Origin: Hoeflea sp. IMCC20628
GTDB lineage: Bacteria; Pseudomonadota; Alphaproteobacteria; Rhizobiales; Rhizobiaceae
Length of the DNA: 64,000 nt
Direction: 5' to 3'
NCBI RefSeq assembly: GCF_001011155.1
Contig: NZ_CP011479.1
Coordinates: 2,684,501 to 2,748,500, forward strand
The translations under genes were made by a program, and so were the position numbers. The notes beneath the pieces were generated by a model. The model ran no database searches. It had not been told where the DNA came from and saw nothing but the letters and a program-made list of their open reading frames with translations. Of this stretch, positions 1,288 to 17,655 are shown piece by piece; the first letter of the stretch is position 1, and the number at the start of each line of letters is the position of its first letter.

Positions 1288-1860
1288 TCACATCCCCTGC
1301 GGGCCGCGGTTCATGGCGGCGATGCCGGTGCGGCAAATTTCGACCAGACCGAGCGGTTTCATGATCGAGATGAACTGTTCGATCTTGGACACCCGGCCGG
1401 TGATTTCGAAAATGAAATGCTCCGTATTGGCGTCGATCACCTGGGCGCGGAAGGCCTCGGCGAGGCGCAACGCCTCGACCCGGTTCTCGCCGGTGCCGGT
1501 CACCTTGACCAGCGCAAGTTCCCGCTCCAGCGGCTTGTCATGACCAAGCTCGACAGACCGCACCGTCAAGTCAACCACGCGGTGGACCGGAATGATGCGT
1601 GATAGATGCGCCTTGACCTGTTCAAGCACATTCGGGGTTGCGGTGGTGACGATGGTGATGCGCGAGAGATGCGCCTCATGCTCTGTTTCCGAGACCGTCA
1701 GACTTTCGATGTTGTAGCCACGGCCGGAAAACAGGCCGATGACGCGGGCAAGAACGCCCGGCTCGTTGTCGACCAGAACCGATAGGGTGTGGGTTTCCGG
1801 AAGAGCGGTTTCGGCGGTCATGAAATAGGCCGAACCGGTGGGTTGATACTGAGCGTTCAT
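1288..1860 (-). CDS. ilvH: Acetolactate synthase small (regulatory) subunit
   Basis: Regulatory subunit of acetohydroxyacid synthase, which makes 2-acetolactate and 2-aceto-2-hydroxybutyrate for valine, leucine and isoleucine. The 190 residues include an N-terminal ACT domain starting near residue 24 (THTLSVLVDNEPGVLARVIG, then GRGYNIESLTV), which in this family binds valine for feedback inhibition, and the usual C-terminal ACT-like domain. Length matches rhizobial IlvH. The ATG is preceded by GAGGAA at 9 bases. It lies 27 bases after ilvI and is surely cotranscribed, under the leader at 3721-3834. Confidence 0.96.
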   Translation of the reverse strand: MNAQYQPTGSAYFMTAETALPETHTLSVLVDNEPGVLARVIGLFSGRGYNIESLTVSETEHEAHLSRITIVTTATPNVLEQVKAHLSRIIPVHRVVDLTVRSVELGHDKPLERELALVKVTGTGENRVEALRLAEAFRAQVIDANTEHFIFEITGRVSKIEQFISIMKPLGLVEICRTGIAAMNRGPQGM

Positions 1861-3663: not shown

Positions 3664-3720
3664 ATCGCCTGACCCCTTATTTCAGTCTGTTTGTCGGGCT
3701 CAATAGCCCGGATTAAGCCA

Positions 3721-3745
3721 TAAAAAAAGGCCCCCGGAGGAGCCT
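3721..3745 (-). terminator. ilvIH attenuator (intrinsic terminator in the leader)
   Basis: On the minus strand an AGGCTCC / GGGGGCCT stem (3728-3745, 7 pairs including one T-G, 4-base loop) runs directly into seven T residues (3722-3728). It lies between the leader peptide stop and the ilvI start, which is the position of an amino-acid-operon attenuator. Confidence 0.8.
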
Positions 3746-3751
3746 GTGTTT

Positions 3752-3800
3752 CGCGCATGGGAGCTTTCGCCGGGTGGCTACGCCACCCTGCCCATGCGCG
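3752..3800 (-). promoter_or_regulatory. Nested leader RNA hairpins of the ilv attenuator
   Basis: CGCGCATGGG (minus strand 3800-3791) pairs perfectly with CCCATGCGCG (3761-3752), and inside it GGGTGGC pairs with GCCACCC (positions 3772-3788, 3-base loop). The left arm of the outer stem lies inside the leader peptide codons just after the Ile-Leu-Val-Val run, so a stalled ribosome would mask it. The exact antiterminator pairing is not settled; CCCGG next to the inner hairpin could pair with CCGGG of the terminator. Confidence 0.65.
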
Positions 3801-3834
3801 GTCCTACCACGAGAATGTTCGCGAAGTTGTTCAT
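3778..3834 (-). CDS. ilv operon leader peptide (18 residues)
   Basis: The ORF reads MNNFANILVVGPRMGRVA and ends in TAG. It has consecutive Ile, Leu, Val, Val codons (ATT CTC GTG GTA) at positions 7-10, i.e. exactly the amino acids whose synthesis the downstream ilvI-ilvH operon supports. It is followed by the nested hairpins and a T-tailed terminator before ilvI. This is the classical layout of ribosome-mediated transcription attenuation. There is hardly any 5' leader: a good promoter ends 7 bases before the ATG, so the peptide is probably translated from a leaderless transcript, as is known for trpL of Sinorhizobium. Confidence 0.82.
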   Translation of the reverse strand: MNNFANILVVGPRMGRVA

Positions 3835-3841
3835 AACAACT

Positions 3842-3870
3842 CTCGTATCGCCTCGCAAAGGCCGGGTCAA
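3842..3870 (-). promoter_or_regulatory. Probable promoter of the ilv leader/operon
   Basis: On the minus strand TTGACC (3870-3865), a spacer of exactly 17 bases, and TACGAG (3847-3842). The -10 is followed by 7 bases (AGTTGTT) and then the ATG of the leader peptide at 3834, which puts the predicted transcription start at or next to the A of that ATG. The -10 matches the consensus in only three positions, so this is a prediction. Confidence 0.55.
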
Positions 3871-3882
3871 CGGCTTTTTTCG

Positions 3883-5895
3883 ATGATTGATGCCAAACAG
3901 ACGTCAAAAACAGGCGCGAGCAACATCCCATTAACTCTGGAGTGCGATGCTGCTGCTGTGGAAAATATGCAGAACATGGATGCCGGGATGACTTCATCGA
4001 GCCCAGACGCCGAGAACGACGCCGATCGTCGCGGTTCTTTCGCGCCCGGAAACAGGTTGATGGGGCGCGTCATCGGCTGCTCCGGCTCCAAAGCGATGAT
4101 CAGCGCGCTTGCCGGAAAAGACGGCAACGGGCTGGCCGAATTGTGGTCCGTCGGACGGCTGATTTCGATCAGTGTCGGTGACAACCGGGTTGTTGCACTT
4201 GTCTGCTCCATGGCGACAGATACAACGGCATGGTCGGAAACCACAGACAACGTCATGCATATCGAAGTCGAACTGGTCGGAGAGATCCGTCTTGGCGTGA
4301 CAGGAAAAGCCGAGTTCAGCGCAGGCATAACGCAATACCCCTACCTCGGCGCGATCGTTCACCGCATGCGCTCCGCCGACCTCGCAGTGATTTATGATCC
4401 GGGCGTCAGCGATACAGCGGTCATTGGCCGGTTGACCCAGGACACATCGCTGGGTGCGCTTGTTCACGTGCCGTCCCTGTTGTCACGGCATTTCGCCGTG
4501 GTCGGAACCACTGGCGTGGGCAAGACCACCGCAGTCACGCTGCTGCTGCACAAGGCACTGCAGTCAGATCCGGCCTTGCGGGTGCTGATTCTTGATCCGC
4601 ACAACGAATTCGCCGCAGCCTTTCCAACCCAATCGGTCGTCATCGATACCGATACGCTTGACCTGCCGTTCTGGCTGTTCCGGCTTGAGGAATTCACCGA
4701 GGTCCTGTTTCGCGGTCGCCCGTCGATCCCCGACGAGATCGACGTTCTGCGCGATATGATCCCGGAAGCCAAGCGGATGTTCAAGGGCAGCACCGACAGC
4801 GTTCTGATGCGCCGTGCACCGGAAAAATCCTCGCTGACCGCAGACACGCCTGTGCCCTACAGGATTGCGGATCTGCTGGCGCTGATCGACGAGCGTATCG
4901 GAAAGCTCGAGGGGCGCGCCGAAAAACCACATCTGCGCGCGCTCAAGGTGCGCATCCAGGCGGCAGTCAATGATCCGCGCTATGAGTTCATGTTCTCATC
5001 CAACACGATCCATGACACGATCCTGACCACGATCAGCCACATCTTCCGCATTCCAGGCGACGGAAAGCCCGTCACCACATTCCAGTTGGCAGGCATTCCT
5101 TCCGAAGTGGTGAATTCGGTTGCCTCCATCCTGTGCCGCATGGCTTTCGAGATCGCGCTGTGGAGCGCAGGAGGGGTGAGAATCCTTGTGGTCTGCGAAG
5201 AAGCCCACCGCTATGTTCCTGCCGACCCGGAGCTTGGCTTTTTTCCGACCCGGCAAGCCATCTCGCGCATTGCCAAGGAGGGCCGTAAATACGGCGTCAG
5301 CCTTGGCGTGATCACCCAGCGTCCCGGCGAACTTGACCCGACGATTCTGTCTCAATGCTCGACGGTCTTCGCCATGCGGCTGTCCAACGACAAGGATCAG
5401 GAAATCATTCGCTCGGCTATTCCGGATTCGTCCGCTTCGACCATGAGTTTCCTGTCTTCGATCGGCAATGGCGAGGCCATTGCCTTCGGCGAAGCCGTGG
5501 CCGTGCCGATGCGCATGGTGTTCGAACGCGTCCCCGAGGACATTTTGCCACGCGCGAATTCCGGATTGCAGCCGGTTCATCGTGGGGATCCGAACACTGT
5601 CGACCTGGGCAAAATTGTCATGCGCATGCGCCATATTGACGAAGGCACAAAGCCTGATGCGCAGGCGCCCAAAACCTTCGCACCGCAGTCGCCGTCCATC
5701 GAGCCGCCGGATTACAGCAGCCCCGCCCCGCCGATGCGCCGGGTCAGCGACGTTCCTGTTCAATCGCATTCGCCAGATCGTGATTACGGCACCTACGAAG
5801 CGCCGGCTGTCGAAACGACTACCCAGCGGCAGGAACTCACAGCACTTCGCTCTAGCCTGCTGAAAAAGCCACTGTCCTCGCTCCTGAAGTCCTGA
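3883..5895 (+). CDS. HerA-like ATPase / DUF87 helicase
   Basis: Predicted hexameric DNA-translocating ATPase of the FtsK-HerA superfamily. From the start used here (670 residues) it has an N-terminal HAS-barrel-like segment (GRVIGCSGSKAMISALAG, from about residue 61), a Walker A GTTGVGKTT at about 208-216, Walker B in LVVCEEAHRYVP, and the HerA-type sensor region ITQRPGELDPTILSQCSTVF. The C-terminal 80 residues are Pro-rich and variable. The frame opens as far back as 3757, but that start lies inside the ilv leader on the other strand; ATG 3883 or ATG 3967 (after GGAAAAT) is more likely. No nurA, sir2 or other usual HerA partner is adjacent, so its job here is open. Confidence 0.85.
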   Translation: MIDAKQTSKTGASNIPLTLECDAAAVENMQNMDAGMTSSSPDAENDADRRGSFAPGNRLMGRVIGCSGSKAMISALAGKDGNGLAELWSVGRLISISVGDNRVVALVCSMATDTTAWSETTDNVMHIEVELVGEIRLGVTGKAEFSAGITQYPYLGAIVHRMRSADLAVIYDPGVSDTAVIGRLTQDTSLGALVHVPSLLSRHFAVVGTTGVGKTTAVTLLLHKALQSDPALRVLILDPHNEFAAAFPTQSVVIDTDTLDLPFWLFRLEEFTEVLFRGRPSIPDEIDVLRDMIPEAKRMFKGSTDSVLMRRAPEKSSLTADTPVPYRIADLLALIDERIGKLEGRAEKPHLRALKVRIQAAVNDPRYEFMFSSNTIHDTILTTISHIFRIPGDGKPVTTFQLAGIPSEVVNSVASILCRMAFEIALWSAGGVRILVVCEEAHRYVPADPELGFFPTRQAISRIAKEGRKYGVSLGVITQRPGELDPTILSQCSTVFAMRLSNDKDQEIIRSAIPDSSASTMSFLSSIGNGEAIAFGEAVAVPMRMVFERVPEDILPRANSGLQPVHRGDPNTVDLGKIVMRMRHIDEGTKPDAQAPKTFAPQSPSIEPPDYSSPAPPMRRVSDVPVQSHSPDRDYGTYEAPAVETTTQRQELTALRSSLLKKPLSSLLKS

Positions 5896-17141: not shown

Positions 17142-17299
17142 GGAATTCCCCTTATCCTCATTTTGTCCCGGAGCCCGGCAAGACCAGAGCTTCACCCCGA
17201 TGGCATGGCAATCGCCGCATGTTTCGCGCTGGCGTTAGCACTGTCAATAGCGTTTTATTGACCACAGACTGCTCAAGCCCTTTTCATTGTCAGCTGCTG

Positions 17300-17655
17300 A
17301 CCCTATATTGGGGATGCTGCGCAAGCAGATATGACAATAAACGAGCGTTGAAATAAACCATTCGGACCCGGGGGCGGTACCCGGCGCCTCCACCATGATC
17401 CGGCGACTATGCCGAGACGGCCAAACGGCCGGATGATGATGGGGGCGAAACAGGATCGACGAGGGTGTAAAGAGCGACTTTTTGTTCGGTATTGTACCAC
17501 CGTTATCGGGCTAAACTTGTAGTTGCAAATGACAACTATGCGGAAGCTCGTCTCGCTGCTTAATTGCGGTGTGACACTTCAAATCAAGTCCTAGAGGGTC
17601 GCACTTCTGGGCGGGGTTCGGAGGTACCTGGCAACAGAAACCTCCACTTTTTTTC
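17300..17655 (+). ncRNA. ssrA: tmRNA (SsrA), circularly permuted two-piece form
   Basis: Rescues stalled ribosomes and adds a degradation tag. The acceptor piece comes first and ends in CGCCTCCACCA at 17395, with a T-arm CCGGG/CCCGG around 17368-17386; the 5' boundary near 17300 is approximate. A spacer (17396-17440) removed in the mature RNA follows. The coding piece begins GGGGGCGAAACAGG at 17441, and GGGGGCG pairs with CGCCTCC to form the acceptor stem. The tag frame at 17525-17563 reads ANDNYAEARLAA then TAA, giving (A)ANDNYAEARLAA. The T-loop GGCGGTA differs from the usual TTCGAAT. Immediately upstream of sspB. Confidence 0.95.
17620..17654 (+). terminator. Terminator of ssrA
   Basis: GGAGGT (17620-17625) pairs with ACCTCC (17640-17645), followed after two bases by seven T (17648-17654). 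Confidence 0.75.

What the first reader, a model, noticed from the sequence alone, without database searches (positions are those of the whole stretch)
3721..3870. Leaderless Ile-Leu-Val-Val leader peptide and attenuator for ilvI-ilvH
An 18-codon ORF with consecutive Ile, Leu, Val and Val codons lies directly upstream of ilvI and is followed by nested perfect hairpins and a T-tailed terminator. A promoter candidate (TTGACC, 17 bases, TACGAG) ends only 7 bases before the leader ATG, so transcription should start at the ATG itself. Ribosome-mediated attenuation is established, and a leaderless trpL is known in Sinorhizobium; leaderless initiation at an ilv leader is inferred. Because it starts with AUG at the 5' end, the leader peptide could also act in trans, as reported for the rhizobial trp leader.
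Basis: partly seen in the sequence, partly recalled or inferred. Interest (0 to 1): 0.75.

Follow-up and report, generated by a model that had tools for sequence, protein, structure and literature searches.

The report
Leaderless branched-chain amino acid attenuator
Just before the genes that start making isoleucine, leucine and valine lies a tiny gene that probably begins at the very first base of its message and lets the ribosome sense these amino acids; the switch is kept in nearly all sampled relatives and, in many Rhizobium species, has been copied in front of a transporter gene.

Summary
An 18-codon ORF (3834-3778, minus) with Ile-Leu-Val-Val codons, nested hairpins and a T-tailed terminator precede ilvIH in a Hoeflea-like genome. 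The RNA is Rfam RF02502 'Atu_C8', filed as an sRNA; 193 of 199 sampled family genomes hold it. Leaderless start is well supported by comparison: TTGAC lies 35-39 nt before the leader ATG in 92 of 92 family loci examined and moves with the ATG when leaders differ by a codon. In other lineages the promoter lies further upstream; start mode changed at least three times. The sensor is constant: the last control codon ends 5 nt before the hairpin in 87 of 92. A textbook antiterminator was not found (less clear order-wide), so how stalling reaches the terminator is unsolved. A peptide acting in trans is not supported by conservation. In passing: 37 of 50 sampled Rhizobium genomes hold extra copies; 24 of 37 copies fetched precede an MFS transporter. 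New variant of a known kind.

The parts
3865..3870 (-). -35 element TTGACC of the leader promoter
   Evidence: TTGAC 35-39 nt 5' of the leader ATG in 92 of 92 family loci examined; at 35-38 nt in 70 of 18400 shuffles
3842..3847 (-). -10 element TACGAG, 7 bases before the ATG
   Evidence: sequence; TA of the -10 lies 23 or 24 nt after the first T of TTGAC in 84 of 92 family loci
3778..3834 (-). leader ORF ilvL, 18 codons plus TAG, MNNFANILVVGPRMGRVA, probably leaderless
3805..3816 (-). control codons ATT CTC GTG GTA (Ile Leu Val Val)
   Evidence: Ile/Leu/Val kept while codons vary in 92 family loci; last control codon ends 5 nt before P1 in 87 of 92
3791..3800 (-). P1 outer helix, 5' strand
   Evidence: 8 of 10 pairs with changes on both sides, 71 sequences
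3772..3788 (-). inner hairpin with the leader stop codon in its loop
   Evidence: 7 of 7 pairs with changes on both sides
3762..3771 (-). small third hairpin GGC-GAAA-GCT of the three-way junction
   Evidence: weak: 77.6% of cells paired, alignment uncertain
3752..3761 (-). P1 outer helix, 3' strand
   Evidence: strong covariation with the 5' strand
3722..3745 (-). intrinsic terminator with T tail
   Evidence: 98.4% of cells paired, 5 of 7 pairs with changes on both sides
3712..3832 (-). Rfam RF02502 Atu_C8 match, 117.9 bits
1888..3663 (-). ilvI, acetolactate synthase large subunit
   Evidence: NF006581 above cut-off
1288..1860 (-). ilvH, acetolactate synthase small subunit
   Evidence: NF008864 above cut-off

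Best explanation
This is the leader-peptide attenuator of ilvIH in a Hoeflea-like bacterium. Transcription starts at, or within about 2 nt of, the A of the leader ATG (inferred from promoter spacing), so ribosomes load on a leaderless message. They read four branched-chain codons that end 5 nt before a long hairpin, P1 (shown by sequence and conservation). With enough Ile, Leu and Val the ribosome runs into P1 and stops at the stop codon in the inner loop; RNA polymerase ends at the terminator and releases a ~113-nt RNA, the one Rfam calls Atu_C8 (inferred). When charged tRNAs run short, the ribosome halts just in front of P1 and read-through into ilvIH rises (inferred from the control codons and the genes, not shown). 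Unlike in the trp attenuators, no strand was found that pairs with a terminator arm in place of its own partner. My preferred, unproven output step is that the state of P1 itself, 1-9 nt upstream of the terminator, changes termination without a classical antiterminator.
For: The element is in 193 of 199 sampled family genomes. A long ilvI match follows in 89 of 92 family loci fetched; the other 3 are extra copies, two before an MFS gene (L059, L064) and one with a 182-residue ilvI match (L061). TTGAC to ATG is 35-39 nt in 92 of 92, sd 0.83, against sd 2.25 to the end of the control run and 2.21 to the RNA model. Leader lengths from ATG to the end of the control run are 24, 27, 30 or 33 nt, yet mean TTGAC to ATG stays at 37.5, 36.9, 36.7 and 36.9; slope 0.92, r 0.93, 0 of 5000 permutations as high. 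Control codons: second base T in 91, 92, 92 and 92 of 92, third bases vary. Gap to P1 5 nt in 87 of 92, 2 nt in 5. Covariation on 71 sequences: 347 cells with double changes against 101 shuffled. The same genome's trpL also has a promoter-like TTGAAG 36 nt before its first ATG.
Against: No mapped 5' end and no expression data. The -10 of the window is poor and the promoter scan misses it. No antiterminator was found, which weakens the claim that stalling at these codons controls this terminator at all. Order-wide the folding result is less clean: 8 of 71 have complementarity z below -0.9 and 9 of 71 a stall-minus-stop difference over 0.3. That a stalled ribosome leaves P1 shut rests on ribosome geometry recalled from memory, not tested. 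The 92 loci are related and mostly high-scoring matches; among 25 low-scoring family loci 14 are of the other, leadered type.
Confidence: 0.7

Rival explanations
1. Textbook attenuator: a weak or non-canonical antiterminator (strand 2 with strand 3) exists and was missed by equilibrium folding; stalling opens P1 and frees strand 2.
For: This is how known amino acid attenuators work (established knowledge); the same genome's trpL shows pairing of 0.73-0.78 on stalling and 0.39 at stop. In 36 of 92 family loci the best upstream partner of the terminator's 5' arm ends about 17 nt past the stop codon, near the small hairpin. 9 of 71 order-wide sequences show a stall-minus-stop difference over 0.3. 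The folding controls are themselves noisy (E. coli ilvL 0.29 at +12 and 0.66 at +6; own trpL 0.71 with no ribosome).
Against: Family mean 0.45 on stalling against 0.41 at stop; complementarity z mean +1.21, lowest -0.41, in 92 loci, while five known or presumed attenuators give -0.9 to -6.1; the top 12 covarying column pairs all lie inside P1, the inner hairpin or the terminator, and the best upstream partner of a terminator column has z 3.0 with 53% of the weight unpaired; control codons lie 5 nt before P1, not inside it.
Confidence: 0.27
2. The terminator is essentially constitutive and the product is a trans-acting small RNA or leaderless peptide mRNA, like rnTrpL and peTrpL of Sinorhizobium; ilvIH is served by basal read-through or another promoter.
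For: Rfam files it as an sRNA; the terminator's 5' arm is less complementary to upstream sequence than shuffles in the family; rnTrpL and peTrpL act in trans in a relative (passages of PMC7298713).
Against: Conserved control codons and the 5-nt gap to P1 point to sensing. Peptide positions 9 to 5 before the end of the control run are variable (2.2 to 3.3 bits), and the codons over P1 show little synonymous change, as expected from the RNA helix. Both strands of P1 drift together. RNA targets were not searched for.
Confidence: 0.12
3. The leader is not leaderless: transcription starts further upstream and an SD or 70S scanning loads the ribosome.
For: In 32 of 63 loci outside the high-scoring family set TTGAC lies 45-67 nt before the start, with a stronger SD-like duplex (mean -6.3 kcal/mol against -2.5 to -4.6 in the leaderless ones).
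Against: In the 92 family loci TTGAC keeps 35-39 nt to the ATG and moves with it; their SD duplex mean is only -2.6; the two genus mates L075 and L076 and Hoeflea alexandrii L178 keep 35-36 nt.
Confidence: 0.07
4. The ORF is chance; the RNA is a purely structural sRNA.
For: Rfam describes it as an sRNA.
Against: Second codon positions of the control codons nearly fixed with varying third positions; three different stop codons at the end of the ORF (TAA 73, TAG 13, TGA 6 of 92); leader lengths differ by whole codons while the promoter follows the ATG.
Confidence: 0.02

Closest known systems
Rfam RF02502 Atu_C8 (Rhizobiales sRNA)
   Same: Full-length match over positions 1-122 above the gathering score.
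   Different: Rfam describes an sRNA; here it is read as the terminated, translated leader of ilvIH. In ten literature searches I saw no paper that says so.
S. meliloti trpL / rnTrpL / peTrpL
   Same: Leaderless leader ORF in a rhizobial attenuator (passages of PMC7298713 and PMC10117765); the window's own genome has a trpL with the same promoter spacing.
   Different: The own trpL shows a predicted antiterminator; trans action of the ilv peptide is not supported by conservation.
Caulobacter ilvL-ilvIH attenuator
   Same: Leader CDS with Ile and Val codons before acetolactate synthase genes (passages of PMC4117421).
   Different: RF02502 finds nothing in the 14 control genomes, among which names Caulobacter vibrioides; the Caulobacter leader itself was not fetched or compared.
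E. coli ilvL, leuL, trpL, thrL
   Same: Control codons, terminator, biosynthetic operon.
   Different: Antiterminators that the same folding test detects; SD-led leaders and control codons within or beside strand 1 (recalled).
Corynebacterium and mycobacterial ilvB attenuators
   Same: Attenuators before ilv operons (search listing and starts of abstracts only).
   Different: Different phylum; not compared in sequence here.

Membership tests
Rfam RF02502 Atu_C8 | Covariance model score above 50 bits | tested here: met
   117.9 bits, positions 1-122
Ribosome-mediated transcription attenuator | Short ORF with codons for the pathway's amino acids upstream of the biosynthetic operon | tested here: met
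   ILVV codons before ilvIH; conserved with synonymous change
Ribosome-mediated transcription attenuator | Intrinsic terminator between leader and structural gene | tested here: met
   U run in 71 of 71 aligned sequences
Ribosome-mediated transcription attenuator | Antiterminator mutually exclusive with the terminator | tested here: inconclusive
   not found by truncated folding, complementarity or covariation, but order-wide 9 of 71 show a stall effect and the controls are noisy
Ribosome-mediated transcription attenuator | Read-through rises on starvation for the control amino acids | not testable with these tools
   needs expression data
Leaderless mRNA | Promoter placed so that transcription starts at the start codon | tested here: met
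   TTGAC to ATG 35-39 nt in 92 of 92; promoter tracks ATG
Leaderless mRNA | 5' end mapped at the A of AUG | not testable with these tools
peTrpL-type trans-acting leader peptide | Peptide sequence conserved beyond control codons and RNA structure | tested here: not met
   entropy 2.2-3.3 bits at positions 9 to 5 before the end of the control run
peTrpL-type trans-acting leader peptide | Effect of ectopic peptide or RNA | not testable with these tools
   needs experiment

The most novel reading that the evidence does not exclude
A distinct attenuator design: control codons placed 5 nt in front of a hairpin that a stalled ribosome leaves shut and a translating ribosome opens, acting on a terminator 1-9 nt downstream with no antiterminator strand; leaderless in one large lineage, leadered in others, and copied as a portable cassette in front of a Bcr/CflA-type transporter that would thereby answer to branched-chain amino acid supply or to slowed translation.
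Probability: 0.3. Interest if true: 0.75.

Novelty: new variant of a known kind. Interest (0 to 1): 0.5.

Why it matters
It re-reads a widespread Rhizobiales 'sRNA' as the translated leader of ilvIH, gives comparative evidence that it is leaderless, and shows that the start mode of one attenuator has changed repeatedly between leaderless and leadered initiation: a natural experiment on leaderless translation. The missing antiterminator makes a textbook mechanism testable. The copies before an MFS transporter suggest an inducer for an unassigned transporter in about half of the 50 Rhizobium genomes sampled (24 copies plus G187).

Tried and rejected
Classical antiterminator: sought by equilibrium folding with a ribosome mask at 20 positions (mean probability of the local terminator 0.96-0.99 throughout; at +12 only L063 of 92 is below 0.5), by truncated folding, by duplex energy against shuffles, by covariation and order-wide. 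Not found in the family; order-wide less clear. The strongest covariation outside the structure, columns 23 and 184 (z 6.8), does not pair in 86% of the weight. An alternative pairing of the 3' arm of the inner hairpin with the terminator's 3' arm appears in the window, among the edges tried, only with the ribosome edge at nt 54, which I judge too far downstream for the control codons; rejected. A pairing of the Val-Gly codons with UCC of the terminator around P1 is seen in some unmasked truncated folds, but 12 of 92 loci have no Gly there; rejected as general.

Element outside the order: 26 ilvI loci of other families of the class gave one forward match (L267, 30.9 bits, E 1e-5, with a weaker match on its other strand); not followed further. 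A leader-like ORF with TTGAC 39 nt upstream was seen in L262, which the RNA model does not match.

Trans-acting peptide: not supported by conservation. RNA targets in trans were not searched. The weak Rfam hit to an L2 ribosomal protein leader (23.4 bits, gathering 37.8) was taken as chance.

Rows dropped or doubtful: L151 (contig end shifted the coordinates) was left out of the weak family set, 25 of 26 used; 7 of 45 order loci had no ATG by my rule and were left out of the start-mode count, 38 of 45 used; L148 was labelled leaderless through an alternative GTG and is probably leadered; with it relabelled the tree needs 7 changes instead of 8 and still at least 3 by starred branches. The tree used 106 of 150 usable rows. 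In one search the ATG in the 80 named loci was chosen in favour of one with TTGAC at 35-39 where several were open, so 79 of 80 leans towards the leaderless reading; the same holds for the spacing count. L244 has only a weak RNA match (20.5 bits). Sampling: of the 193 family genomes with a match, loci of 92 mostly high-scoring and 26 low-scoring matches were examined.

Full report
What is there. On the minus strand, between ilvI (3663-1888) and a divergent HerA-like ATPase ORF, lies a leader of about 123 nt. The promoter TTGACC-17-TACGAG ends 7 bases before an ATG at 3834. The ORF reads MNNFANILVVGPRMGRVA, stop TAG. The RNA folds into a 10-bp outer helix (P1), which holds an inner hairpin with the stop codon in its loop and a small GAAA hairpin, followed by a terminator with a U run. 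ilvI and ilvH score above the curated cut-offs for acetolactate synthase large and small subunits. The best of the 80 named ilvI relatives kept is from Hoeflea alexandrii, 95% identical (records very near the window may be left out there).

Known identity. The RNA is Rfam RF02502, 'Rhizobiales sRNA Atu_C8', 117.9 bits. The Rfam model begins at the third base of the ATG. If the Rfam boundary reflects an RNA-seq 5' end, that is independent support for a start at the ATG; this is inference. I take the name to come from Wilms et al. 2012 (recalled; the paper was not held; passages of PMC3738593 describe that study). Ten literature searches showed no paper that links Atu_C8 with ilvI or calls an ilv leader of rhizobia leaderless; RF02502 itself was found in one paper, in a list of benchmark families (passages of PMC5913331), and the main text of a survey of Rhizobiales sRNAs does not contain 'ilv' (PMC3927594). 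Most subscription papers are not in that library. From memory, a 2004 comparative study by Vitreschak and colleagues predicted branched-chain attenuators for ilvIH in Alphaproteobacteria; I saw only its reference entry and it was not held. In Caulobacter an ilvL leader CDS and attenuation of ilvIH are described (passages of PMC4117421). So the general kind is known.

Distribution. The own genome has one copy. 193 of 199 sampled genomes of the same family have a match at E 0.001 or better, 187 of 199 above the Rfam cut-off; the six without are genomes of 1.2 to 2.0 Mb. In the order 100 of 199 match, 28 above cut-off. None of 14 control genomes matches. I examined 92 family loci (mostly the higher-scoring ones), 45 other loci of the order, and 26 low-scoring family loci. 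A long ilvI match follows in 89 of the 92 family loci; L059 and L064 have none within 1.5 kb, and L061 has a 182-residue match.

Leaderless start. The leader ATG was chosen by frame, control codons and nearness to the RNA model's start, not by the promoter. In 92 of 92 family loci TTGAC lies 35-39 nt before it (57 at 37); 70 of 18400 shuffled upstream stretches have it at 35-38. The distance has sd 0.83 to the ATG, but 2.25 to the end of the control run and 2.21 to the RNA model. Leaders differ in length by whole codons (24, 27, 30 or 33 nt from ATG to the end of the control run; 8, 33, 44 and 7 loci), and the promoter moves with the ATG: mean 37.5, 36.9, 36.7, 36.9 nt; slope 0.92, r 0.93, 0 of 5000 permutations as high. 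The loci are related, so the permutation count overstates the evidence, but a promoter that follows the ATG rather than the RNA element is what a leaderless message demands. The -10 TA lies mostly 13-14 nt before the ATG, which puts the start at the ATG or 1-2 nt before it. Of the 80 named relatives, 79 fit (the choice of ATG there leaned towards this). The same genome's trpL (MTMHVAQNNWWWVRF) has TTGAAG 36 nt before its first ATG; leaderless trpL is described for S. meliloti (passages of PMC7298713 and PMC10117765), and 171 leaderless start sites were mapped in that species (passages of PMC3616915).

The start mode changes. Outside the 92, 20 of 63 loci have TTGAC at 34-39 nt (one of them, L148, doubtful), 32 of 63 at 45-67 nt, and 11 of 63 neither. 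In the second class the SD-like duplex just before the start is stronger (mean -6.3 kcal/mol against -2.6 in the 92). Fourteen of the 25 low-scoring family loci are of this leadered class, so the leaderless mode is not universal in the family. On an ilvI tree of 106 rows the leaderless label needs 8 changes (7 with L148 relabelled), and well-supported branches force at least 3; shuffled labels need about 33 (quick method, many weak forks). The same attenuator has therefore been rewired between the two start modes more than once.

Translation. In the four control codons the second base is T in 91, 92, 92 and 92 of 92, while third bases vary, for example GTG 47 and GTA 42 in the last codon. The stop codon is TAA in 73, TAG in 13 and TGA in 6. 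By contrast the codons that overlap P1 show little synonymous change (CGC 81, GGC 87 of 92), as expected from the helix, and the residues between start and control run vary (2.2 to 3.3 bits). The peptide seems kept for what it senses, not for its own sequence.

Structure. On 23 family sequences 94.0% of cells pair. On 71 sequences (the window's locus, 45 loci of the order outside the family, 25 low-scoring family loci) 93.4% pair, with 347 double-change cells against 101 in shuffles and a covariation score of 0.506 against 0.182; P1 has 8 of 10 pairs with double changes, the inner hairpin 7 of 7, the terminator 5 of 7, the small hairpin 3 of 3 but only 77.6% paired. That alignment was fitted to the structure and leans towards it.

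Sensor geometry. The gap between the last control codon and the first pair of P1 is 5 nt in 87 and 2 nt in 5 of 92 family loci; on the 71-sequence alignment it is 5 nt in 58, 2 nt in 5, apparently 8 nt in 3 (two of them perhaps read out of frame), and 5 were not readable in frame. The distance from ATG to the control codons varies, so this gap is the constant of the system. By recalled ribosome geometry (unwinding about 11 nt downstream of the first P-site base), a ribosome with the last control codon in its A site sits at the foot of P1 without opening it. This was not tested.

Missing antiterminator. With the RNA truncated before the terminator's 3' arm, the 5' arm pairs upstream with mean probability 0.45 when the ribosome edge is 12 nt past the control run, 0.41 when it is 12 nt past the stop, and 0.38 with no ribosome (92 loci). 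E. coli thrL, leuL, trpL and ilvL give 0.29-0.67 at +12, 0.62-0.90 at +0 to +6, and at most 0.05 at stop; the own trpL gives 0.73-0.78 on stalling, 0.39 at stop and 0.71 with no ribosome. Complementarity of the 5' arm to the free upstream stretch is below that of shuffled sequence in the family (z mean +1.21, lowest -0.41), against -0.9 to -6.1 in the four E. coli attenuators and the own trpL; of these controls only thrL is strong. In the 71 sequences the top 12 covarying column pairs all belong to P1, the inner hairpin or the terminator, and the best upstream partner of a terminator column has z 3.0 with 53% of the weight unpaired; several terminator columns hardly vary, so covariation has little power there. 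In the same 71 complementarity is less clear: z mean 0.63, 8 of 71 below -0.9, and a stall-minus-stop difference over 0.3 in 9 of 71. I conclude that a conserved textbook antiterminator is unlikely but not excluded. P1 ends 1-9 nt before the terminator, so an effect of P1 itself is my preferred, unproven, output step.

Extra copies. I fetched 37 of these places: 24 precede an MFS transporter, 12 an ilvI paralogue, and 1 (L324) is a main ilvI copy; G187 and G023, fetched before, add one of each kind. Three MFS proteins tested score best with the Bcr/CflA efflux family TIGR00710, two below and one above its cut-off (162.5, 173.2, 216.7; cut-off 200.9). In 36 of the 37 places an ATG with a branched-chain run has TTGAC 36-38 nt upstream (ATG chosen in favour of that spacing); in L314 no such ORF was found. 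Many of these leaders carry longer runs such as VLVVVI. An MFS gene 47% identical follows a second copy in G127, of another family, where that copy scores 85 bits against 47.1 for the genome's own ilvI copy; transfer of leader plus transporter is a likely reading, not tested. The substrate is unknown.

Verdict. The finding is real, the leaderless reading is strengthened, the textbook mechanism is weakened at its output step, and the trans-peptide idea is not supported.

Noticed in passing
L164, L165, L288-L299, L305, L307, L313-L321, L323 (Rhizobium) and L167 (G127): Extra copies of the same leader and terminator lie before an MFS transporter of Bcr/CflA type: 24 of 37 places fetched, two fetched earlier, and one in another family whose protein is 47% identical.
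   Followed up: partly
L166, L168, L300-L304, L306, L308-L312, L322: Other extra copies precede an ilvI paralogue, 63-70% identical to the window's ilvI in the 12; in L168 only part of it matches. In L166 an ORF downstream looks like a siderophore-binding protein (read by eye, not searched).
   Followed up: partly
L177, ATG at locus base 464: The same genome's trpL (MTMHVAQNNWWWVRF) also has a promoter-like TTGAAG 36 nt before the ATG and a predicted antiterminator.
   Followed up: partly
window 3710-3695, minus strand: A second perfect hairpin CGGGCT-ATTG-AGCCCG lies between the terminator and the ilvI start; function unknown, it might shield or time ilvI translation.
   Followed up: no
window 3757-5895, plus strand: A divergent ORF with matches to HerA-type ATPases, all below cut-off, whose mechanical start overlaps the leader; the likelier start is near 3882 (by eye), so the two genes probably share the intergenic promoter region.
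   Followed up: no
window 17277-17648, plus strand: Alphaproteobacterial tmRNA (RF01849, 295.4 bits).
   Followed up: no
L262 and L267 (other alphaproteobacterial families): ilvI leaders outside the order: L267 matches the RNA model (30.9 bits), L262 has a 16-codon ORF with TTGAC 39 nt upstream but no model match.
   Followed up: no
family loci, codon after the control run: The codon after the control run is GGA in 70 of 92 loci, unusually constant for a synonymous choice; no pairing partner could be shown.
   Followed up: partly
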